DNA of 64,000 bases, taken from assembly GCF_038811545.1 (NCBI RefSeq), contig NZ_CP133319.1:310001-374000 (forward strand), in the 5' to 3' direction. Made by a program: the position numbers and the translations under genes. Source of the stretch: Rhodoligotrophos sp. CJ14 (GTDB lineage: Bacteria; Pseudomonadota; Alphaproteobacteria; Rhizobiales; Im1). Below are positions 6,273 to 49,485 of this stretch, piece after piece. Below the pieces are notes generated by a model. The model saw only the letters and a list, made by a program, of their open reading frames with translations. It made no database searches and was not told where the DNA came from. Positions within the stretch are counted from its first letter, which is position 1, and each line of letters starts with the position of its first letter.

Positions 6273-7580
<1,308 letters not shown>

Positions 7581-7584
7581 GACT

Positions 7585-7613
7585 GCGAAGGGCAGGGGCG
7601 GCCTGCCCTTCGC
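7585..7613. terminator. Hairpin terminator after eno, probably bidirectional
   Basis: Perfect 12-bp stem (GCGAAGGGCAGG / CCTGCCCTTCGC) with a five-base loop, five bases after the eno stop. There is no clear T-tract. It lies between eno and the converging small gene ending at 7630, so it could serve both strands. Confidence 0.7.
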
Positions 7614-7629
7614 CTATCATGTTCCTAGA

Positions 7630-7884
7630 TCAACGCCCCCACAGGCCGTCCCCGTGATGATGGGCATCATAGGCCGGCGGCTCCTCCAAACGGAGCGAGC
7701 CAGTATGATATGCCGGCGGCGGATTATGGTAGCCCAATTCTAGCGGAGGCGCACTCGGCGCCGGGTGAAAAGCCGGGCGCGGTGCGGTGACCGACTCGCT
7801 CAGGGGCCGATAGGCCCCGGGGGTACCTAGTGAGCTTCCGCCATGTGTGGAAAAGGAATAACTTCCTGAACTGCCGAATAGCAT
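7630..7884 (-). CDS. Small Pro/Tyr/His-rich protein with two PPxY motifs and C-terminal DGLWGR (unrecognised)
   Basis: I do not recognise this family. The 84-residue product is low-complexity: Ser/Gly-rich N-terminus (MLFGSSGSYSFSTHGG), then Pro-rich, with two PPAY motifs (within NPPPAYHTG and EEPPAYDAHHH) and the C-terminus HHHGDGLWGR. There is no signal peptide or transmembrane helix. GAGGT sits about nine bases before ATG 7884, which supports translation. The last residues match those of the next gene upstream on this strand (HHNNDGLWGHR), and the PPxY motifs recur in the third gene of the cluster. It is probably a disordered protein that acts through short linear motifs. Function unknown. 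Confidence 0.6.
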   Translation of the reverse strand: MLFGSSGSYSFSTHGGSSLGTPGAYRPLSESVTAPRPAFHPAPSAPPLELGYHNPPPAYHTGSLRLEEPPAYDAHHHGDGLWGR

Positions 7885-8088
7885 AGAGTGGACCTCGTCA
7901 ATACAACTGTTCCCGCGGTCACCTATTGCGAGCCTCGACGCGAGTTAGGGCTGCACGAATAGAGTATGCCGGGGCGAAATGGCGCCGCCTCGACCTCCGG
8001 ACCCGCATTGGGCGGGGCTTTGGGGTGGCGGCAGGTGCGAACCTGGGAAGGATCCGTGGCGGCCCTTCCCAGCGATCCGTTTAGACGG

Positions 8089-8295
8089 TCAGCGGTGGCC
8101 CCACAGCCCATCATTGTTATGATGAGCGGTTTGGGTCACAGAGTGGGCATTGCGATCGAAATAAGCGAAGTCGCTGTGGCCGTGGTCCGTAACAGGATGA
8201 GCATTCGCGATCGCTCGCACATCCAGCGGTTTGTTCATCATCTCACGGGTGGCGTCGGACAGTTGGAAGTTAAATGGGTTTTTACCTGAAAACAT
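8089..8295 (-). CDS. Small protein with C-terminal DGLWGHR (unrecognised, same cluster)
   Basis: The 68-residue product begins MFSGKNPFNFQLSD. ATG 8295 is chosen because AAAGGA lies eight bases upstream; an in-frame ATG at 8328 would add 11 basic residues. The C-terminal third is His/Asn-rich and ends HHNNDGLWGHR, close to the C-terminus of the neighbouring gene at 7630-7884. There is no PPxY motif in this member, and no membrane segment. It starts 47 bases after the stop of the upstream cluster gene, so the two could be cotranscribed. The upstream DNA (about 8280-8340) is AT-richer than its surroundings. Confidence 0.55.
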   Translation of the reverse strand: MFSGKNPFNFQLSDATREMMNKPLDVRAIANAHPVTDHGHSDFAYFDRNAHSVTQTAHHNNDGLWGHR

Positions 8296-8342
8296 CGTAA
8301 ATTTCCTTTTAAATGTGACCTTCATCAAGTCGTTTGGTAGCT

Positions 8343-8900
8343 TTACTGTTCAAAGTGGTTCGATAGACCTTTGAAACAGTGGGCAGTTACTATGAAATCT
8401 GCCTGGTTTATGCATGTTAATATTTTGTCACTTGTTATCTGTTCACTTTTCGACGAGCGACCAGCGAGATTTGCCGGCAAACCCATTTTGCCATCCAGCC
8501 GCAAGTGAAGCGCGGACATATTGCCCGCTAGGTTTCGAGCCCCGCGCTCGCACCGACGGCGGTGGCACGCCAGAATTTGCTGCTTGAAAGCGCGGCTGCT
8601 AGCCGAAGGACCCGCCAACATCCCTTGCCCGTAGAGTCCGAAATGATCGGCATGGTGCGAGGACCCGGCAGGCTCCGACCAGAGACCACCTCCATGTCCG
8701 CTCTGACGGGAAAACAGTCCATGCCCGCCGCTATTCTGATTGTGAGAGTGAAGCACTTGGTAGGACGGTGGCAACAAGGCCTTCGAGGACTTCTCATCGT
8801 CATAGGAGGGTGGCGCGCCAAACAACCCCAGCACTTTCGATTTGTCATAGGTAGGCGCGGCCGACTTCATTCTTTCACTCTGGTCGGGATGATCCTTCAT
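8343..8900 (-). CDS. PPxY- and GL(F/W/Y)(G/S)-repeat protein (unrecognised, same cluster)
   Basis: The 185-residue frame has an N-terminal half with PTYDKSK, GLFGAPPSYDDEK and LPPSYQ, then a Gly/His-rich stretch carrying GHGLFSRQ, GGGLWSEP and HFGLYGQG. Four aromatic GLx(G/S) motifs and two PPSY motifs link it to the two genes downstream. The remaining ~90 residues are basic and differ in character (HRRRCERGARN and beyond), so the functional protein may be shorter. The start is uncertain: ATG 8900 has no clear ribosome site, ATG 8870 is an alternative, and the frame stays open and Pro-rich upstream without a start codon. Confidence 0.45.
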   Translation of the reverse strand: MKDHPDQSERMKSAAPTYDKSKVLGLFGAPPSYDDEKSSKALLPPSYQVLHSHNQNSGGHGLFSRQSGHGGGLWSEPAGSSHHADHFGLYGQGMLAGPSASSRAFKQQILACHRRRCERGARNLAGNMSALHLRLDGKMGLPANLAGRSSKSEQITSDKILTCINQADFIVTAHCFKGLSNHFEQ

Positions 8901-9270
8901 AAAGACGTAGCGCGGATAGAGCGGTTGTCCTGTGGGGCCTGTGGAAGGTGGTGGACATGATCATCATTTACTGACGGGCGAGTGCTCGAGGAAGATCCGC
9001 CCGCCACCAAGGACGCCGCATACTGAAAAAACGCAATGCTGATTTCCTTTCAACGACAGCCAATGCCACGCTCATCGAACCTGAAGGCTGCCCCTCTCGA
9101 TCGTCGTGGGCAGCACGAAGGCGGTATGGGTGGAGAAGGGGAAATATGCGCTGCCGAATGAATGCACAACTTAAAATTGTGTAAAGGGTCGATCCCATGC
9201 CCCACCTCGATAACGGCTTGCTAACCCTGTGCTGGTATTGAAACCTGGTCCTCCTCAGCGTCTGTGTGCC
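8901..9270. other. Intergenic region between the small-gene cluster and ftsB
   Basis: No convincing gene. The minus-strand reading frame that overlaps ftsB is a shadow. The AT-richer stretch near 9165-9185 could hold a promoter for ftsB, but no clear -35/-10 pair can be defended. Confidence 0.4.
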
Positions 9271-9597
9271 ATGCGTTTCAAATCCAAATCGGCAATCCTG
9301 TTCATGCTGGCTGCGATCGGCACCTTGGGATATTTTACCTGGCATGGCCTCCACGGCAGCCGTGGCGTCGAGAGGGTGGCTGAGCTCAGGCTTAAGGTTG
9401 AGCGCCTGGAAGGCGAGCTCGCTCAGCTGAAGGAGCAGCGTCTGGCTCTCGAGCGGCGCGTCGTTTTGCTTCGTCCAGAGAGTATCGATCCTGACATGCT
9501 CGATGAGGAAGCGCGAGCATTGCTCGGCTTCGTTCACGAGAATGACCGATCGATTCCCCTCGACCGCAGCGGTGGCGTGGCTGCCTTTGCCGAATAA
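9271..9597 (+). CDS. ftsB: Septum formation initiator FtsB/DivIC
   Basis: Bitopic division protein of the FtsQLB complex. ATG 9271 gives 108 residues: a short basic N-terminus (MRFKSKS), one transmembrane helix (AILFMLAAIGTLGYFTW), then a coiled coil (about residues 35-75, LKVERLEGELAQLKEQRLAL) and a short periplasmic tail. This architecture and the position just before pdhA match the alphaproteobacterial FtsB/DivIC gene. A longer frame from about 9229 exists but adds residues unlike the family. The ribosome site is weak. Confidence 0.82.
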   Translation: MRFKSKSAILFMLAAIGTLGYFTWHGLHGSRGVERVAELRLKVERLEGELAQLKEQRLALERRVVLLRPESIDPDMLDEEARALLGFVHENDRSIPLDRSGGVAAFAE

Positions 9598-9730
9598 CCT
9601 TAATCCAGTTAATCTGAAAATATACAGCAGAATCAGCAGCTTGATCTGATTTGAACAGGCCTACATCCCTATAGCTTTGAAGCATCGAAGGCGCTATCCT
9701 CTCGCCACGATTATCGCTTGGGAGATGTCG

Positions 9731-10825
9731 ATGGTGGCGCGCAAGGCCAAACCTGCAAGCACAACCCGCGAAGCCAAGAGCGAAGCGAGGAAGCCGGCCA
9801 GAAGCACGAGGACAGCGAAGACTACGCAGCCCCAGCCTCCCTTCGGCGTTGCTGACCTCACCCGGGATCAAGAGCTTCAGGCCCTGACCGATATGCTTCT
9901 GATCCGGCGTTTCGAGGAGAAGGCCGGACAGCTCTATGGCATGGGCTATATCGGCGGCTTCTGCCATCTCTATATCGGCCAGGAGGCCGTGGTCGTCGGC
10001 ATGCAAATGGCGCTGAAGCCGGGCGATCAGGTCATCACCTCCTATCGCGATCACGGCCATATGCTGGCAACCGGCATGGACCCGAAAGGCGTGATGGCCG
10101 AACTCACCGGCCGCCACAGCGGCTATTCCAAGGGCAAGGGCGGCTCCATGCATATGTTCAGCCGCGAGAAGGCCTTCTTCGGCGGCCATGGTATTGTCGG
10201 CGCCCAGGTGCCGATTGGCACCGGGCTCGCTTTCGCCAATAAATACCGGAATTCCGACGCGGTCTCGCTCACCTATTTCGGTGAAGGTGCCGCGAACCAG
10301 GGCCAGGTCTATGAAAGCTTCAACATGGCCTCCCTCTGGAAGCTGCCGGTGGTCTACATCATCGAGAATAACCAATATGCCATGGGCACCTCGGTCAGTC
10401 GGGCCGCGGCACATGCCGAGGAGCTTTGCCTCCGCGGCACGGCCTTCGGCATTCCCGGCGAGCGGGTCGATGGCATGGATGTGCGCGCCGTGAAGGCGGC
10501 TGGCGATTACGCGGTCGACTACTGCCGGTCGGGCAAGGGGCCGATCATCCTGGAGATGCGCACCTATCGCTACCGCGGCCATTCCATGTCGGACCCTGCG
10601 AAATACCGCACCCGCGACGAGGTGCAGCGTATGCGGCAGGAGCATGACCCGATCGAGCAGGTGCGCAAGCGCCTCCTTGAAAAAGGCCTCGCAACCGAGG
10701 ACGACCTGAAGGAGATCGACCGCAAGGTTCGCGAGCGCGTCACCGAGGCTGCCGAATTTGCGCAATCTGCGCCCGAGCCGGATCCATCGGAGCTTTGGAC
10801 GGATGTCTATGTCGAGAGCGCTTGA
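9731..10825 (+). CDS. pdhA: Pyruvate dehydrogenase E1 component, alpha subunit
   Basis: Decarboxylates pyruvate with thiamine diphosphate (ThDP) in the E1 alpha2-beta2 heterotetramer. ATG 9731 is chosen because GGGAG lies about six bases upstream; ATG 9725 and an upstream TTG are alternatives. The first ~35 residues are a basic, Ala/Lys/Thr-rich tail before the catalytic domain. Conserved pieces are 'GFCHLYIGQEA', 'SYRDHGHMLA', 'GKGGSMHMFS', the ThDP segment GEGAANQGQ...ENN, and 'RYRGHSMSDPAKYR' (phosphorylation-loop equivalent). The usual metal-binding GDG reads GEG here, as I recall for the branched-chain E1-alpha. First gene of the pdhA-pdhB-pdhC-lpd operon; the preceding ~130 bases are AT-rich and probably hold the promoter. 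Confidence 0.95.
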   Translation: MVARKAKPASTTREAKSEARKPARSTRTAKTTQPQPPFGVADLTRDQELQALTDMLLIRRFEEKAGQLYGMGYIGGFCHLYIGQEAVVVGMQMALKPGDQVITSYRDHGHMLATGMDPKGVMAELTGRHSGYSKGKGGSMHMFSREKAFFGGHGIVGAQVPIGTGLAFANKYRNSDAVSLTYFGEGAANQGQVYESFNMASLWKLPVVYIIENNQYAMGTSVSRAAAHAEELCLRGTAFGIPGERVDGMDVRAVKAAGDYAVDYCRSGKGPIILEMRTYRYRGHSMSDPAKYRTRDEVQRMRQEHDPIEQVRKRLLEKGLATEDDLKEIDRKVRERVTEAAEFAQSAPEPDPSELWTDVYVESA

Positions 10826-10979
10826 TGCGGGGTCGATGGGCGGGCATTGTCCCAAGGCTCATGCCGCGCCCCGGCATTCGCCGCCTTTCGGTGCCCCGCA
10901 GGATCGAACCTCACACAGGCGCGGATTTCTCCCGCGCTGAAGCCGCCACCCCCAATTGTCTGTCGGCAGGATAATCCGC

Positions 10980-12419
10980 ATGCCCATTCCTGTTCTGATG
11001 CCGGCCCTCTCTCCGACCATGGAAGAGGGCACCCTCGCAAAATGGCTGGTCAAGGAAGGTGACAAGGTCTCATCGGGCGATGTCATCGCCGAAATCGAAA
11101 CCGACAAGGCCACTATGGAGGTCGAGGCGGTGGATGAAGGGACCGTCGGCAAGATCCTCGTGGCCGCCGGCACCGAGGGCGTCAAGGTGAACACCCCGAT
11201 CGCCGTGCTGGTGGCGGAGGGGGAGGATGCATCAGCGCCTCTGCCTGAACGCGATGCTCCCAAGCCAGCCGATGAGCCGTCGACCGCCTCGCCGGAAGCG
11301 GTGGTGGAAAAGGCACCCTCCGAGGGCTCGGGCTCACGCCCCGTTGCGGAAAGCCACGGCCGGCCGGCCGCCCCCGGTGGGGAAGCGCGCATTGGAGCGG
11401 CAGTTGCCGGTGATCCCGAGATCCCTGAGGGAACCGAGCTCGTCTCGATGACCGTGCGCGAGGCGTTGCGGGATGCGATGGCGGAAGAGATGCGGGCCGA
11501 TGATACGGTCTTCGTCATCGGTGAGGAGGTCGCCGAATATCAGGGCGCCTATAAGGTCACGCAAGGCCTGCTCGATGAGTTCGGTGCGCGCCGGGTGATC
11601 GATACGCCGATCACCGAGCATGGCTTCACGGGCCTCGCGGTCGGGGCGGCCTTCGGCGGATTGAAGCCGATCGTCGAGTTCATGACCTTCAATTTCGCCA
11701 TGCAGGCCATGGACCAGATCATCAATTCCGCGGCGAAGACCCTTTACATGTCCGGCGGCCAGATGGGTGCGCATATGGTGTTTCGCGGGCCCAATGGCGC
11801 AGCCGCGCGCGTTGCCGCCCAGCACAGCCAGGACTTCTCGTCCTGGTATGCGCATATCCCCGGTCTCAAGGTGATCGCGCCCTATACGGCAGCGGATGCG
11901 AAGGGATTGCTCAAAGCCGCCATTCGCGATCCCAATCCTGTGGTCTTCCTTGAGAACGAGCTGCTCTATGGCCGTGCTTTCGAGGTGCCGAAACTCGATG
12001 ATTGGGTGCTGCCCATCGGCAAGGCGCGCATCGCCAGGCAGGGCAAGGACGTCACTCTCGTTTCCTATTCGATCGGCATGCAATATGCGCTCGAAGCCGC
12101 CGAGAAGCTGAGCGCCGATGGTATCGAGGCCGAGGTGATCGATCTGCGCAGCCTGCGCCCGCTCGATATCGACACGGTGATTGCCAGCGTGAAGAAGACC
12201 AATCGCTGTGTCACCGTCGAGGAAGGCTGGCCGGTCTGCTCGATCGGCTCGGAGATCGCCGCCCAGCTCATGGACAAGGCCTTCGACTGGCTGGACGCCC
12301 CGGTGCTGCGGGTCAATGGCAAGGACGTGCCCATGCCCTATGCTGCCAATCTCGAGAAGCTGGCACTGCCTTCGGTCGACGAGGTGATCGAGGCCGTGCA
12401 CAAGGTCATCTATCGCTGA
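10980..12419 (+). CDS. pdhB: Pyruvate dehydrogenase E1 component, beta subunit, with N-terminal lipoyl domain
   Basis: Partner of PdhA. ATG 10980 gives 480 residues. Residues 1-80 are a lipoyl domain with the lipoylated lysine at position 43 ([12 protein letters not shown]), then a Pro/Ala/Glu linker to about 150, then the E1-beta transketolase fold ([61 protein letters not shown]). The lipoyl fusion on E1-beta is typical of alphaproteobacteria. By my count the first 82 residues differ from those of PdhC at only eight positions. A 154-base gap separates it from pdhA. Confidence 0.96.
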
Positions 12420-17693: not shown

Positions 17694-18872
17694 TCACCTC
17701 AGCGGCAACCGAACCAATGCGGTTGCATAGGCTACCATGCCTTCTTTGCGTCCGATGAAACCCATTTCTTCATTTGTCGTTGCCTTGATCCCGACGCGGT
17801 CGGTGGTCACGCCCAGCATGCGGGCAACCGCCTCCTTCATTTCTGCCAGATGTGGCTTGATCTTCGGGGCTTCGCTCACCAGCGTGATGTCGCAATTGGC
17901 GATAAGCCCGCCGAGCGCCTTCACCTTGCGCACGGCCTCCTCGACGAACACCGAGGAAGCGGCCCCCTTCCACTGGGGATCGCTGGGTGGGAAATGAACG
18001 CCGATATCGCCTTCGCCGATCGCACCGAAGATCGCGTCGGTGAGGGCATGCAGCGCCACATCCGCGTCTGAATGGCCCACAAGCCCGTGGCTGTGCGGGA
18101 TGCGCACGCCGCACAGGGTCACATGATCGCCCGGGCCGAACTGGTGGACATCAAACCCATGGCCCACGCGGATATCGGCCAGTGCCGCCCATTGTTCCTG
18201 GCGCAAGCGGGCATCCGCTGATGCGATGTCTTCCGAGGTGGTGAGTTTCACGTTCTGCCTTTCTCCGGAAATGACCGCGACGGGAATGCCGGCCCATTCG
18301 GCAAGAGATGCATCATCCGTGAAATCGCGGTGTTCACTTCTTTTGGCGCGGTCATGGATCTCGATGATGGCGTTGTAGCGAAAACCCTGGGGCGTCTGGG
18401 CCCCCCACAGGCCGTCCCGGTCGATGGTTGCCACAATTGTCCCATCGCGCGTGACCCGCTTGATGGTCTCCGCGATCGGTAAGGCAGGGATGACAGCTGT
18501 GTGCTCGCGCAGGGCTGCCACCACGTTTGAGATCAAAGCCGGGCTCACGAAGGGCCGCGCCCCGTCATGGATGAGCACGCCGTCCGGAGCATAGGGCTCC
18601 AGCGCGCTCAGCCCGTTGTGGACCGAGCCTTGGCGAGTATCCGCACCCGTCACGAAAGGCAACAGATCGAGCCCGCTGAGTGCGTCCTGGCAGATGGGCA
18701 AATGGTCCTTGCCAATCACCACCTGCACCTGACTGATTTCGGGATGATCGAGGAAGGCCTGAACCGTGTGGCGCAGCACCGGCACCGCACCGATCTCCTG
18801 ATATTGCTTGGGCAGGGGGCCGCCGGCACGAATGCCTGAACCTGCAGCGACGATGAGGGCAGCAATGACCAT
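17694..18872 (-). CDS. ispDF: Bifunctional IspD/IspF, MEP isoprenoid pathway
   Basis: Fusion of 2-C-methyl-D-erythritol 4-phosphate cytidylyltransferase and 2,4-cyclodiphosphate synthase, characteristic of alphaproteobacteria. The IspD half (about 1-230) has '[21 protein letters not shown]', the nucleotide loop, and '[11 protein letters not shown]'. The IspF half (from about 235) has '[12 protein letters not shown]' and '[19 protein letters not shown]' with zinc ligands. ATG 18872 gives 392 residues; the longer frame adds 49 residues unlike IspD. It lies divergent from dusB, with a ~200-base gap for promoters. Confidence 0.95.
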
Positions 18873-19072
18873 GGGTCTAAGACATGCCTTTCCTAGAACA
18901 GACGAGACTGAGGCTTTATACGATCTGGCGCAAAAGTCGACCGGTGCGACGAGCAAACCGCTCTGCGGCATGGCGCCCCCGGGCCAGGCCATCCATCGCT
19001 CGCGACTTGCTCTTCCCACGCAATTGCTGCAGATTGCTCACCAGTTAATCGGGACTGCCAGTTGCATAAAAT

Positions 19073-20086
19073 ATGAGCATTCGTATCGGGCCTCTTCAGC
19101 TGCGCAACCGGGTGCTCCTCGCCCCGATGTCGGGGGTCACAGATCTTCCCTTTCGCCGCCTTGCCTGCCGGCTCGGCGCGGGTCTCGTCGTCTCCGAAAT
19201 GGTGGCGAGCGAGGCCTTGGCGCTCTCGAATGCCGAAACCCTGCGCCGGGCTGCGGGCGCGGGTGAGGTCTCTCCGCTCGTCATCCAACTTGCCGGGCGT
19301 GAGGAGCGCTGGATGGGGGAGGGGGCCCGCATTGCGGAAAGCCTCGGCGCCGATGTGATCGACATCAATATGGGCTGTCCCGCCCGCAAGGTGACGAACG
19401 GTCTATGCGGCTCGGCCCTGATGCGCGATCTTGATCATGCGATACGGCTGGTGCGCGCAACCATCGCGGCAACCAGCCGGCCGGTGACCCTGAAGATGCG
19501 CCTCGGTTGGGATGAGGCCAGCATCAATGCGCCCGAGCTTGCGCGCCGGGCCGAGGCTGAAGGCGTGGCGCTGGTGACCGTCCATGGCCGCACCCGCTGC
19601 CAATTCTACACGGGCCGGGCCAATTGGGCGGCCATTCGCGCTGTCAAAGAGGCCGTGTCGATCCCCGTGATCGCCAATGGCGATGTCGGCACCATCGAGG
19701 ATGTGCGCCTCATGCTTGATCAGTCCGGCGCAGACGGAGTGATGATCGGCCGCGGCGCCTATGGGCGTCCCTGGGCACCCGGCGTTCTTGCCGAGGCGCT
19801 CGATCCCGGCCGCGGCCGGCCGATGCCGAGCCTTGCCGAACAGCACGCGCTGATTGCCGAGCACTATGAGGCGATGCTCGAGCATTACGGACGCGAGATG
19901 GGCATTCGCTGCGCCCGCAAGCATCTGGGCTGGATGGTGGAGGTGCTGCGGGACGCAGGCTATGTCTCCGAGGGTGGAGCGGCAATGTGGCGCCAACGGC
20001 TCTGCAGCGCTACAGATCCGGCCGCTGTCCGTGACGGGTTGGCGGCGCTCTACGGCGAGCTCCCGGGCAGGAAAGCCGCGGCATGA
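19073..20086 (+). CDS. dusB: tRNA-dihydrouridine synthase DusB (NifR3)
   Basis: FMN enzyme that reduces uridine to dihydrouridine in tRNA. Motifs: '[15 protein letters not shown]' at the start of the barrel, '[23 protein letters not shown]' with the catalytic cysteine, and '[13 protein letters not shown]' near the phosphate site. Length 337 is normal. The stop overlaps ntrB (ATGA), the classic nifR3-ntrB-ntrC arrangement, so it is the first gene of the nitrogen-regulation operon. Confidence 0.96.
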
Positions 20087-44714: not shown

Positions 44715-45266
44715 TTAGCGGCAGAACGCCTGTCGACCGGAATACGTGACGAAATATCCCGTATTCGGATCGAAGCTGCGATACCGGCTAGAGCAGTACC
44801 GGTACCATGCTGGCGTCCAAGGCTGCAGGCCGCCACCCACATACGCTGTCCGGTAGCCATAGCCATAGCCATAGACTGGAGCCGTGGCGAGCGCGGCCGC
44901 GCCCAATCCAAGCCCAAGCCCTAAGCCGACGAGCGGTCCGGGACCCCAGCCGCCACGCCAGCCGTGCCGGTGACCCCAGCCCCAACGCGGTCCGTGTCCC
45001 CAGCCTCCACGCCAGCCCCAACGCGGACCACCGCCCCAACGGGCGCCGCGCCAGCCGCCGCCATAGCCACCACGCCAGCCGCCGCCCCAGCGGCCACCAC
45101 CGCCGCCGCGCCAACGCACCTGTTCGGCGCCAAAGCTTGCGGACTGCCGCATGCTATCGCCCATCGTGATCGTGCTGATTGGAGAGGCGGCCGAGGCCGG
45201 ATTTGGCGCCGTAGCGGCCAGTCCGATGACCATCGCTCCTGCAATACCCAACATTAAGCTCTTCAT
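44715..45266 (-). CDS. BA14K-family secreted protein, Gly/Trp/Arg-rich
   Basis: Signal peptide (MKSLMLGIAGAMVIGLAATA...ASA), then a Gly/Trp/Arg-rich repeat region (RWRGGGGGRWGGGWRGGYGG and GPRWGWRGGWGHG-like units, about 50-115), a Gly/Leu hydrophobic segment (LVGLGLGLGLGAAALATAPV), and a C-terminal BA14K-like module with 'YCSSRYRSFDPNTGYFVTYSG' and a final Cys. BA14K was described as a Brucella surface protein with lectin-like activity. ATG 45266 is chosen because GGAG lies six bases upstream; ATG 45272 overlaps the ribosome site. Confidence 0.8.
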   Translation of the reverse strand: MKSLMLGIAGAMVIGLAATAPNPASAASPISTITMGDSMRQSASFGAEQVRWRGGGGGRWGGGWRGGYGGGWRGARWGGGPRWGWRGGWGHGPRWGWGHRHGWRGGWGPGPLVGLGLGLGLGAAALATAPVYGYGYGYRTAYVGGGLQPWTPAWYRYCSSRYRSFDPNTGYFVTYSGRQAFCR

Positions 45267-47313: not shown

Positions 47314-49485
47314 ATGAAGAAAACCAATGCAATCGCGGCGCTGGCTGCCATTCTTCTTGTGGGCACCAGCCCCGCAGCGCTGGTCTATTCGCAAAGCTCC
47401 GACCAGCAAGAGCAGCAGGATCCGCGCCAGCAGCGACAGCAACAACGCCAACAGGAAAGGCAAGAGCGGCAGCAGCAACGTCAGGAACGACAGCAGGAGC
47501 GCGAGGAGCGTCCGCAACAGCGGCAGGAAAGACCTGAGCGTCAGGAGAGACAAGAGCGTCAACAGCAGCGTCAAGAGCGTCAAGAGCAGCGTCAAGAGCG
47601 GCCCGAACGACAGGAACGCCCCGAGCGGCAAGAAAGGCAAGAGCGACAGGAACGCCAGCAACGTCCTGAGCGGCAAGAAAGGCAAGAGCGACAGGAACGC
47701 CAGCAACGTCCTGAGCGGCAAGAAAGGCAAGAGCGACAGGAACGCCAGCAACGTCCTGAGCGGCAGGAGCGGCAAGAACGCCAGCAGGAGCGCCAGGAGC
47801 GTCAGCAGCAACGGCAGGAAAGACCTGAGCGTCAGGAGCGTCAACAACGCGAGCAGCAACAGCAGGAACGACAAGAACGCCAGCAGCAGCGCCAAGAACG
47901 ACAGCAGGAGCGCCAGCAGCAACAGCAGGAGCGGCAAGAACGCCAGCAGGAGCGTCAGCAGCAACAGCAGCAACGTCAGGAAAGACCCGAGCGCCAGGAG
48001 CGGCAACAGGGCGAGGAAAGGCAACAGCGCCAAGAGCAGCGCCAGCAACGAGAACAGCGCCAGCAGCCTCAGGAGCAGCAGCGGGAGGAGCCGCGCGATG
48101 AGCAGCAGCGCGAGCGCCAGCCCCGCGGCGAGCGGCAGGAGGAGCTGCGCAACCGTCTCGAACAACGCCGGGAACAACGCGAGACCGATCGGGATCAGCG
48201 TCGGCAAGAGCTGCAGGAGCGCATGCGGCAGAGGCAGGACGGCGAAACCCGCCCTGGACAGGCTGAAGAAGGAGAGGATACGCGGCGCGATCGGCGTGGT
48301 CGGCCTGGTCAGGATGGGGAGGAGCGCCCCAGCGCGGAGGATCGTCAGCGTCCCGAGCGCGAGGGCCAGACCAGCCAAAGGCCCGCCCGCGAGCAGCAGG
48401 AAGAACGCTTCCGTCGCTGGCGCGAGCGGGACAATCCCGAATTCAATCGGGACCGTGAGCAGCGGGCGCGGGAAATCATCGAAGACAATCGCCGGTCCGA
48501 AGACCTCGATGAGCGCGCGCTGCGGCGGCGTCTCGATGAAAACCGCGATGCCCTCCAGCGCCGGGACATGAACGAGCGTGAACGGGCGCGCCTGCTCGAG
48601 CGGCTTGAGCGTGACCGTGAGGCGCTGCGCCAGCGCGTTGATCGGGACGACTGGGAATTTGATCCGGACCGCTTCGAGAGGCGCCGCGACCGCTCGGAGA
48701 TCGTCGAGCTACGCCGGCGCTATCTGGATAATCCGCGCCGCCGGGACGAGCTGGACGAGCGTGACCTGCGCAGGCGCGCTTATGACATCGAATGGATGAT
48801 CGAGCACGGTGACTTATCGCCCGCCGAGCGCCGCCGCCTGAGCGAATTGCTGGAGGAAGACCGGGGCTATCTCCGCCGCGAGCTACGCGAGGAGCGTGAG
48901 CGCCGTTGGCGCGAGCGCGATCGCTGGCGTTATCGCGATAGAAATGCCGAGATCTATATCGAGCCGGGCGTCGTGTTCGTGCCCCAGCCCTATATCTCGG
49001 CCGCGGAATATCCGGAGGAGGTCATCTATGGCCAGCTCTCGGCGCCGCCGCTCGCACCGGTCCAGCAGCGCTACGACTATCAGCAGATCGTCCAGGAGGA
49101 CGATGTGCGCGAACTGATGCCGGCCATCGACCTCGACAACATCAATTTCGGCTTCGGCGAGGCCTTCATCCGTCCCGAGGAGGTCGAGAAGCTCGATGCG
49201 ATCGGCATAGCCATGGAGCAGATGGTCGCGCAGAATCCGGAGGAGGTGTATCTCATCGAGGGTCACACCGACGCGGTGGGCTCTGATGAGGCCAATCTCG
49301 AGCTCTCCCGCCAGCGCGCGGAAGCCGTGAAGGAGGCGCTCCTCGAATATTACAATCTCAAGCCCGAGAACCTGCAGACGGTCGGCTATGGCGAGCGATA
49401 TCTCAAGATCCCGACTGATGGGCCTGAGCAGGAGAACCGTCGCGTGAGCGTCCGCCGCATCACGCCGCTGATTGCGGGTCAGTGA
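47314..49485 (+). CDS. OmpA-family protein with a large Gln/Arg/Glu repeat domain
   Basis: 723 residues. A signal peptide (MKKTNAIAALAAILLVGTSPAALVYS) is followed by about 300 residues of almost only Gln, Arg, Glu and Pro in an (E/Q)RQ(E/Q)-type pattern, then a charged Arg/Glu/Asp region to about 540, a short segment (IYIEPGVVFVPQPYISAAEYP), and a C-terminal OmpA peptidoglycan-binding domain (about 600-720; 'LDAIGIAMEQMVAQNPEEVYLIEGHTDAVGSDEANLELSRQRAEAVKEAL'). GGAGGAGG precedes the start. The repeat part is likely an extended coil in the periplasm. Three exact 45-bp repeats lie inside it. Confidence 0.85.
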   Translation: MKKTNAIAALAAILLVGTSPAALVYSQSSDQQEQQDPRQQRQQQRQQERQERQQQRQERQQEREERPQQRQERPERQERQERQQQRQERQEQRQERPERQERPERQERQERQERQQRPERQERQERQERQQRPERQERQERQERQQRPERQERQERQQERQERQQQRQERPERQERQQREQQQQERQERQQQRQERQQERQQQQQERQERQQERQQQQQQRQERPERQERQQGEERQQRQEQRQQREQRQQPQEQQREEPRDEQQRERQPRGERQEELRNRLEQRREQRETDRDQRRQELQERMRQRQDGETRPGQAEEGEDTRRDRRGRPGQDGEERPSAEDRQRPEREGQTSQRPAREQQEERFRRWRERDNPEFNRDREQRAREIIEDNRRSEDLDERALRRRLDENRDALQRRDMNERERARLLERLERDREALRQRVDRDDWEFDPDRFERRRDRSEIVELRRRYLDNPRRRDELDERDLRRRAYDIEWMIEHGDLSPAERRRLSELLEEDRGYLRRELREERERRWRERDRWRYRDRNAEIYIEPGVVFVPQPYISAAEYPEEVIYGQLSAPPLAPVQQRYDYQQIVQEDDVRELMPAIDLDNINFGFGEAFIRPEEVEKLDAIGIAMEQMVAQNPEEVYLIEGHTDAVGSDEANLELSRQRAEAVKEALLEYYNLKPENLQTVGYGERYLKIPTDGPEQENRRVSVRRITPLIAGQ
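47623..47757 (+). repeat. Three perfect 45-bp tandem repeats in the OmpA-family gene
   Basis: Units at 47623-47667, 47668-47712 and 47713-47757 are identical and encode ERQERQERQERQQRP. The flanking DNA is a degenerate form of the same pattern. Identity at the DNA level points to recent unit duplication and probable length variation between strains. Confidence 0.9.

What the first reader, a model, noticed from the sequence alone, without database searches (positions are those of the whole stretch)
7630..8900. Cluster of three unrecognised small genes with PPxY and GL(W/F/Y)(G/S) short motifs
Three consecutive minus-strand ORFs share a His/Gly/Pro/Tyr-rich, disordered-looking composition. Two carry paired PPxY motifs (PPAY twice, PPSY twice), and all three carry GLx(G/S) with an aromatic x (GLFG, GLFS, GLWS, GLYG, GLWG twice). 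PPxY is the ligand of eukaryotic WW domains and is rarely repeated in small bacterial proteins. The pattern suggests a family that works through repeated linear motifs, perhaps assembly, surface display or host interaction. No known family was recognised.
Basis: partly seen in the sequence, partly recalled or inferred. Interest (0 to 1): 0.7.

Follow-up and report, generated by a model that had tools for sequence, protein, structure and literature searches.

The report
Orphan small proteins with shared tail
Three neighbouring small genes in one alphaproteobacterium appear to encode unstructured proteins sharing a short glycine-leucine-tryptophan tail, which a small gene in a sister species also seems to carry; their job is unknown, and nothing shows that they act on a host.

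Summary
The three minus-strand ORFs and their motifs are real. They fill a 1.69-kb gap between an enolase and an ftsB-like gene. Motif sharing is beyond chance: HH-x(0-5)-GL[WFY]G occurs in 3 of 4,011 ORFs of 30 aa or more in 362 kb of this genome, all three of them these. ORF1 and ORF2 end in DGLWG-R and DGLWG-HR. ORF1 and ORF3 each carry a PPxY pair 13-14 residues apart. Synonymous codons vary, so the motifs are not fresh DNA copies. Corrections: ORF2 most likely starts at 8295, and ORF3 looks coding only over its first ~92 residues. No family, structure, phage or plasmid match was found, and no credible full-length homologue in 397 genomes of the order. A re-check found one candidate relative in a congener: a 63-aa gene ending DGLWG-H, with a good ribosome-binding site and native codon statistics, next to another orphan gene. 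A host-effector role is not supported: no type III or type VI marker was found, and the two VirB4-like loci look like Trb conjugation operons. Best reading: a genus-restricted family of small disordered proteins that share a C-terminal docking tail. Function is unproven.

The parts
7630..7884 (-). ORF1, 84 aa, Pro/Gly/Ser/His-rich, no Cys; PPAY at residues 56 and 69; ends AHHHGDGLWG-R
   Evidence: start ATG behind GACGAGGTCCACTCT; own frame is the best of six by native codon statistics
8089..8295 (-). ORF2, 68 aa from the ATG at 8295 (one search lists a TTG start at 8328); His/Asn-rich, no Cys; ends AHHNNDGLWG-HR
   Evidence: AAAAGGAAATTTACG before the ATG
8343..8900 (-). ORF3, 185 aa as an open frame; PPSY at residues 30 and 44; GLFG, GLFS, GLWS, GLYG; no clear ribosome-binding site at either of its first two ATGs
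8622..8900 (-). coding-like part of ORF3 (residues 1-93): no Cys, all the motifs; the rest (8343-8621) has 4 Cys, none of the motifs and no coding signal
7636..7665 (-). C-terminal box of ORF1, AHHHGDGLWG
   Evidence: (29-nt repeat 7637-7665 / 8099-8127, 76%)
8098..8127 (-). C-terminal box of ORF2, AHHNNDGLWG
8628..8660 (-). corresponding box of ORF3, SHHADHFGLYG, internal in the open frame
7669..7719 (-). PPxY pair of ORF1 (residues 56-59 and 69-72, start-to-start 13)
8760..8813 (-). PPxY pair of ORF3 (residues 30-33 and 44-47, start-to-start 14)
6297..7580 (+). left border of the slot: enolase gene (named by my reading of the translation)
   Evidence: tblastn finds it at 70-92% identity in 13 of 20 related loci
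9271..9597 (+). right border of the slot: ftsB/DivIC-like gene (named by my reading)
   Evidence: relatives in 39 of 41 genomes, own included

Best explanation
A real, very young or fast-evolving family of small, cysteine-free, disordered proteins (about 68-93 aa here), held in a variable slot between two housekeeping genes, with one candidate relative in a sister species at another place. The bodies differ, while the C-terminal part is shared: HH-x(2-4)-GL[W/Y]G in the three, and DGLWG-[H/R] at the very end of ORF1, ORF2 and the sister-species protein, whose body starts with a hydrophobic stretch. Two bodies carry a PPxY pair. Mechanism, inferred: the tail is a docking tag that brings different bodies to one shared bacterial partner (a scaffold, assembly or export component), and the His, Tyr and PPxY elements add weak multivalent contacts. 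Shown: the shared box, its rarity, its place at the stop, the PPxY pairs, synonymous codon variety, and gene-like signals of the sister-species gene. Inferred: expression, docking, the partner, common descent with the sister-species gene, and that ORF3 once ended near its box.
For: Box in 3 of 4,011 ORFs, all here. A profile of the box finds these three at E 5e-7 to 4e-5 in the own genome, matched by construction, and one further place up to E 10 (E 0.43), which lies 484 codons before the end of a 507-codon frame. Of 8,803 neighbouring same-strand ORF pairs, 9 share a 10-residue stretch with 8 or more identities. ORF1/ORF2 is one; at least half of the other eight read as tandem paralogues or shadow frames opposite them (my reading), and only in ORF1/ORF2 do both matches end within 2 residues of the stop. 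ORF1/ORF2 alignment score reached by 0 of 2,000 shuffles each way; ORF1/ORF3 by 31 and 138. Varied synonymous codons, e.g. GL as GGC CTG, GGG CTG, GGG TTG, GGA CTG, GGT CTC, GGA CTC. Own frame best of six for ORF1, ORF2 and ORF3 residues 1-92. Congener G001: 63-aa ORF ending DGLWGH, start behind TAGGAGCGTTGC, 9 bases after the stop of a 374-aa orphan ORF, own-frame margin 6.8 against 7.3 (sd 4.2) for native pieces; score with ORF2 reached by 3 and 5 of 2,000 shuffles, with ORF1 by 56 and 24.
Against: Codon evidence for the three is weak. The share of shuffled ORFs with an equal or better frame margin is 0.064 (ORF1), 0.163 (ORF2), 0.301 (whole ORF3) and 0.027 (ORF3 residues 1-92). Against a plain local-composition model ORF1 and whole ORF3 score lower, and ORF2 and ORF3 residues 1-92 only 0.7 and 1.7 higher, where native pieces average 11.6. 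ORF2/ORF3 similarity is not significant (812 and 822 of 2,000), nor ORF3/congener (1,151 and 1,170). By raw alignment score the ORF1/ORF2 pair is not special: 132 of 6,416 pairs reach 50, against its 54. The congener gene was picked from 67 pattern places in 13 genomes; another congener has a 149-aa, ordinary-looking ORF ending DGLWG, so such an end can arise by chance. No full-length homologue, so no dN/dS. No promoter or terminator consensus. Nothing shows expression or a partner.
Confidence: 0.46

Rival explanations
1. Relics: the three ORFs are decaying pieces of one or more older genes whose protein carried repeats of a His-Gly-aromatic module, and are no longer functional.
For: ORF3 loses coding signal and changes composition after residue ~92 and has no clear ribosome-binding site. 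Coding statistics are poor throughout. The open frame of ORF3 runs on 20 codons upstream of its first ATG and is Pro/Tyr-rich there.
Against: ORF1 and ORF2 are complete, start behind purine-rich ribosome-binding-like sequences, and place the box at nearly the same distance from the stop. A congener has a gene-like ORF with the same end.
Confidence: 0.2
2. Not genes: a non-coding spacer in a GC-rich genome in which open frames arise freely; the shared box comes from a short DNA duplication.
For: Open frames this long are common in shuffles; a 29-nt direct repeat underlies the ORF1/ORF2 box; no full-length homologues.
Against: The box and the PPxY pairs recur with varied synonymous codons, in three ORFs on one strand and in no other ORF of 362 kb; motif counts in ORF3 were reached by 0 of 20,000 shuffles.
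Confidence: 0.14
3. Metal handling: small His-rich proteins that buffer or deliver a transition metal through the HH and HxH clusters, with the GLWG tail as a cap or docking point.
For: 7, 7 and 8 His in 84, 68 and 93 residues, with an HH pair in each of the three boxes.
Against: No Cys in ORF1, ORF2 or ORF3 residues 1-93; a pure metal binder does not explain the conserved GL-aromatic-G; no metal gene recognised next door (my reading).
Confidence: 0.11
4. Host-directed effectors that recruit WW-domain ubiquitin ligases through paired PPxY motifs.
For: Two PPxY pairs with 13- and 14-residue spacing.
Against: No type III or type VI marker; only Trb-like conjugation loci for type IV; no PPxY in ORF2 or in the congener candidate; no signal peptide recognised by eye in the three; no lifestyle evidence. 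The two bacterial effectors read up act on NEDD4-type ligases without a canonical PPxY of their own (PMC5768648, PMC12720080, passages).
Confidence: 0.03

Closest known systems
Taxonomically restricted (orphan) small bacterial genes, including de novo genes (papers seen only in the listing, e.g. PMC4765031)
   Same: short, no full-length homologues found, atypical composition, found between housekeeping genes, no confident fold
   Different: here three neighbours share a C-terminal box, two share a motif pair, and a sister species has a candidate with the same last residues, so the set shows internal family structure (that this is unusual is my judgement)
C-terminal targeting-peptide cargo, such as encapsulin cargo (recalled)
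   Same: different small bodies with a short common C-terminal tail
   Different: no encapsulin shell (PF04454) found in the own genome or 3 relatives; the sequence is not the recalled encapsulin tag
PPxY adaptors of NEDD4-type ligases (eukaryotic NDFIP2, TMEM127; passages of PMC12720080)
   Same: one or more PPxY or PY motifs
   Different: bacterial protein with no known export route and no WW-domain partner in evidence; PPxY is absent from ORF2
FG/GLFG nucleoporin repeats (recalled)
   Same: repeated Gly-Leu-aromatic-Gly units in a disordered-looking chain
   Different: only 1 to 4 units per protein, and no pore or condensate evidence; works-like at most

Membership tests
Any curated protein family (Pfam, NCBIfam, PHROGs, PADLOC) | profile match for ORF1, ORF2 or ORF3 | tested here: not met
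   0 families for 3 of 3 proteins in Pfam (E up to 5), NCBIfam, PHROGs and PADLOC, the last three at E up to 1
Known structure family (PDB sequences) | significant sequence match | tested here: not met
   at E up to 1: best E 0.5 for ORF3, none for ORF1, 0.28 for ORF2
Lineage-restricted orphan gene cluster | no full-length homologue in related genomes | tested here: met
   397 genomes of the order, own included. ORF1+ORF2: 49 places at E up to 0.05, 47 outside the cluster (best 9.8e-5), of which I translated 4. ORF3 residues 1-93: 5 places at E up to 0.01, 4 outside (best 3.5e-4), all 4 translated. All 8 look compositional; the other 43 were judged by E-value only
Lineage-restricted orphan gene cluster | translated product | not testable with these tools
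   needs ribosome profiling or proteomics
Single paralogous family | all members share sequence beyond composition | tested here: inconclusive
   ORF1/ORF2 0 of 2,000 shuffles; ORF1/ORF3 31 and 138; ORF2/ORF3 812 and 822; the box is shared by all three
Tail family reaching a sister species | the same C-terminal end in a gene of a congener | tested here: inconclusive
   63-aa ORF of G001 ends DGLWGH; 3 and 5 of 2,000 shuffles against ORF2, 56 and 24 against ORF1, 1,151 and 1,170 against ORF3 residues 1-93
Type III secreted effector | a type III system in the genome | tested here: not met
   TIGR01399: no match in the own genome or two congeners; over the cut-off in G003
Type VI secreted effector | VipB sheath in the genome | tested here: not met
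   PF05943: 0 of 4 genomes
Type IV secreted effector | effector-type VirB/D4 system | tested here: inconclusive
   two VirB4-like genes in the own genome; their neighbours read as trb conjugation operons by order and sequence (my reading, no family scan)
Encapsulin cargo | encapsulin shell gene in the genome | tested here: not met
   PF04454: 0 of 4 genomes
NEDD4-type PPxY adaptor | binding to WW domains | not testable with these tools
   motif only

The most novel reading that the evidence does not exclude
A previously unseen bacterial tail-tag system of this genus: small proteins with different bodies, some disordered and one with a hydrophobic start, are all addressed to one partner by a C-terminal DGLWG-[H/R] peptide, and gaps such as eno-ftsB are nursery slots in which each species builds its own set.
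Probability: 0.15. Interest if true: 0.65.

Novelty: new member of a known kind. Interest (0 to 1): 0.4.

Why it matters
Most orphan genes give no handle on function. A set whose members share a short tail but little else offers one: the tail can be used as bait. The eno-ftsB gap also gives a fixed place where gain of new small genes can be followed between close species. If the tail proves to be an address tag, it would be a new way for bacteria to sort small disordered proteins.

Tried and rejected
Full-length homologues: ORF3 in 31 genomes, ORF1+ORF2 and ORF3 residues 1-93 in 397 genomes of the order, ORF3 in genome contigs, plasmids and phages, and each ORF in viral contigs. The one viral hit shares little beyond GSYSFSTH in an otherwise different frame. 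Of the weak genome hits I translated 9 (1, 4 of 47, 4 of 4); they look compositional or shadow frames.

C-terminal GL-W-G before a stop as a genome-wide tag: the DNA pattern gave 67 places in 13 genomes, of which 30 came as loci. My first reading of these and of the profile places looked at one strand only and missed minus-strand places. redid both strands: 14 of 30 loci have the tail in frame, and 4 of them in an ORF of 40 aa or more from a start codon. These are ORF1, the 63-aa congener ORF, a 149-aa congener ORF that looks like an ordinary protein, and a 45-aa ORF of G003 ending GFWG. Three more places of the genus, fetched later, hold no ORF of 40 aa or more with the motifs. The pattern allowed at most one residue after GL-W-G, so tails like that of ORF2 would be missed.

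The congener 63-aa protein and its 374-aa neighbour: no convincing Pfam or PHROG match (best E 0.76 and 0.033, both for the 374-aa one) and none in viral contigs. The 374-aa protein is not similar to the 339-aa ORF of the other congener (439 and 440 of 2,000 shuffles).

RNA: no Rfam match at 7000-9700 up to E 1. No tRNA in the window, so no tRNA-linked integration site there.

Common origin with the two orphan ORFs in the G002 slot: ORF1 against the 173-aa ORF 95 and 132 of 2,000 shuffles, the rest weaker; no significant DNA similarity inside the slot. Left open.

Host-effector, encapsulin-cargo and type VI readings: lowered.

Naming the organism: the ftsB scan of genome contigs returned 9 loci at 39-49% identity, titled Hyphomicrobiales, Alphaproteobacteria or Rhodospirillaceae, with no close relative among them.

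Full report
What is there. The window lies in a single-contig genome of 4,813,108 bases. Between a plus-strand enolase gene (6297-7580) and a plus-strand ftsB/DivIC-like gene (9271-9597; both named by my reading) lie 1,690 bases with three minus-strand open frames: ORF1 7630-7884, ORF2 8089-8328 and ORF3 8343-8900.

Better boundaries. ORF2 most likely begins at the ATG at 8295, after AAAAGGAAATTTACG, giving 68 aa. ORF1 begins after GACGAGGTCCACTCT. ORF3 has no clear ribosome-binding site at either of its first two ATGs. A codon model trained on 156 long ORFs (218,100 bases) prefers the own frame over the other five for ORF1, ORF2 and ORF3 residues 1-92, but not for the rest of ORF3. Against ORFs from 300 shuffles of the region, the fractions with an equal or larger margin are 0.064, 0.163, 0.027 and 0.763 in that order, and 0.301 for the whole of ORF3. 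Against a plain local-composition model ORF1 and whole ORF3 score lower, and ORF2 and ORF3 residues 1-92 only 0.7 and 1.7 nats per 100 bases higher, where native pieces average 11.6. ORF1, ORF2 and ORF3 residues 1-93 have no cysteine; ORF3 residues 94-185 have four. So ORF3 may be a protein of about 90 aa with a relic or chance extension.

Are the motifs more than chance? As a control I used the window plus 15 stretches of the same genome, 362,002 bases. Of 2,059 ORFs of 60 aa or more, 13 have a PPxY and 3 have two: ORF1, ORF3 and an enzyme-like ORF with two overlapping ones. GL[WFY][GS] occurs twice or more in ORF3 and in one membrane-protein-like ORF. Residue shuffles: 80 and 557 of 20,000 for ORF1, 39 of 20,000 for ORF2 (GLx[GS]), and 0 of 20,000 for each motif in ORF3. 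The box HH-x(0-5)-GL[WFY]G occurs in 3 of 4,011 ORFs of 30 aa or more, exactly these three. A profile of the box, which matches its sources by construction, finds one further place in the own genome up to E 10, at E 0.43. On its matched strand that place reads HHHQDGLGW near the start of a 507-codon frame, so it is not a tail.

Are they related to each other? ORF1 and ORF2 share AHHHGDGLWG and AHHNNDGLWG, one and two residues from the stop. Of 8,803 neighbouring same-strand ORF pairs in the control, 9 share a 10-residue stretch this similar. Of the other eight I read at least half as tandem paralogues (such as the two lipoyl-domain genes in the window) or shadow frames opposite them, and none of the eight lies so near both stops. 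Shuffles of either partner never reach the ORF1/ORF2 score (0 of 2,000 each way). ORF1/ORF3 is weaker (31 and 138 of 2,000) and aligns the two PPxY pairs, spaced 13 and 14. ORF2/ORF3 is not significant (812 and 822 of 2,000). Told against: by gapped alignment score alone the ORF1/ORF2 pair is not special, since 132 of 6,416 pairs reach 50 or more while it scores 54.

Protein-level or DNA-level? A 29-nt repeat at 76% identity underlies the ORF1/ORF2 box. But the six GL units use GGC CTG, GGG CTG, GGG TTG, GGA CTG, GGT CTC and GGA CTC; the PPSY pair uses CCA CCC TCC TAT and CCA CCG TCC TAC; and the conserved residues of the ORF1/ORF2 box differ at third positions. That is what protein-level constraint or old divergence gives, not fresh copying. 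It was read on motifs chosen for their amino-acid match, so it is not a dN/dS test.

A candidate relative in a sister species. Re-reading the pattern places on both strands brought up a 63-aa ORF in congener G001 (L014 1501-1692, minus; the same as L125 9673-9864) that ends DGLWGH and has SHSH upstream of the tail. It starts behind TAGGAGCGTTGC, 9 bases after the stop of a 374-aa orphan ORF on the same strand, and its own frame leads by 6.8 (native pieces 7.3, sd 4.2). Its N-terminus is hydrophobic, and it has no PPxY. Its score with ORF2 is reached by 3 and 5 of 2,000 shuffles, with ORF1 by 56 and 24, with ORF3 residues 1-93 by 1,151 and 1,170. The tail codons differ from those of ORF1 and ORF2. 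Among 956 ORFs of 30 aa or more in seven other stretches held (six from G001-G003 and one of the own genome) it is the only one with GL[WFY]G in the last 8 residues, but its region was fetched for that reason. Told against: it was picked from 67 places in 13 genomes, and a 149-aa ordinary-looking ORF of congener G002 also ends DGLWG. I call it a candidate, not a homologue.

Other relatives. No family in Pfam, NCBIfam, PHROGs or PADLOC and no solved structure. No credible full-length homologue in 397 genomes of the order, in genome contigs for ORF3, in plasmids or phages for ORF3, or in viral contigs for all three. Of the weak genome hits I translated 9, and they look compositional; the rest were judged by E-value. 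Own-genome and near-identical records may be left out of some collections, as those outputs say. Single-sequence AlphaFold models have mean pLDDT 45.8 (ORF3) and 62.3 (ORF1), with no confident fold; with no alignment this is weak evidence for disorder. ORF2 was not folded.

The slot. In 20 related loci I looked for eno upstream of ftsB within the DNA held (1.3 to about 10 kb on that side); 13 have it. The approximate gap runs from 67 to 2,097 bases, and 4 of the 13 exceed 1 kb. In congener G002 (enolase 92% identical) the gap is about 2.0 kb and holds two other minus-strand ORFs of 339 and 173 aa, with no family match. The best match to the 339-aa one in 20 other genomes has E 0.028. Their own frames are the best of six. 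In the 15-kb regions of G001 and G003 eno was not found beside ftsB. So this is a place where species-specific genes turn up.

Host interaction? The own genome gave no match to the type III export gate model. That model also rings for control genomes with flagella, so this species and two congeners may lack flagella too (inference). Type VI VipB: none. Two VirB4-like genes exist; their neighbourhoods read as trb conjugation operons. The published bacterial cases I opened concern effectors acting on NEDD4-type ligases: Ehrlichia TRP32 is said to lack a canonical PPxY (PMC5768648, passages), and Salmonella SteD is said to lack one and to work with the host adaptor TMEM127 (PMC12720080, passages). 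Three other searches found no paper joining this tail, or PPxY with GLFG or with bacterial genome motifs, to a bacterial family (one search listed one plant serpin paper).

Conclusion. The family idea is plausible, the host idea is not supported, and function remains an inference. I put 0.46 on a real family with a docking tail, 0.20 on relics, 0.14 on non-genes, 0.11 on metal handling and 0.03 on host effectors.

Noticed in passing
L053 (congener G002) 7801-8820 and 9011-9532, minus strand: Two further orphan ORFs (339 and 173 aa) in the same eno-ftsB slot; the 173-aa one has three imperfect copies of G-T-[HN]-[LF]-D.
   Followed up: partly
L125 (congener G001) 9874-10998, minus strand: 374-aa orphan ORF directly upstream of the 63-aa tail gene, with a coiled-coil-like Gln/Glu/Lys-rich middle (my reading); no convincing family.
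   Followed up: partly
L125 (congener G001) 17712-19676, minus strand: Three further ORFs (193, 160 and 228 aa) that I did not recognise, two of them with low third-position GC for this genus.
   Followed up: no
window 47314-49485, plus strand: 723-aa protein with a long Gln/Arg/Glu tandem-repeat region behind a signal-like N-terminus, ending in what looks like an OmpA-type domain (my reading); repeats seen.
   Followed up: partly
window 44932-45113: GC-rich tandem repeats of 24-54 bases in an ORF rich in His, Arg, Pro and Ser.
   Followed up: no
L092 and L093 (own genome 3043000-3062000 and 2680000-2699000): Two similar trb-like conjugation operons, probably two related integrative elements (my reading).
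   Followed up: partly
L055 (G003, same family): A match over the cut-off to the type III export gate model, with a second sub-cut-off match elsewhere in that genome (L058), while the three genomes searched of the window's genus have neither.
   Followed up: no
L085 and L088: Gaps of about 2.1 and 1.1 kb between eno and ftsB in named Hyphomicrobiales MAGs; contents not examined.
   Followed up: no
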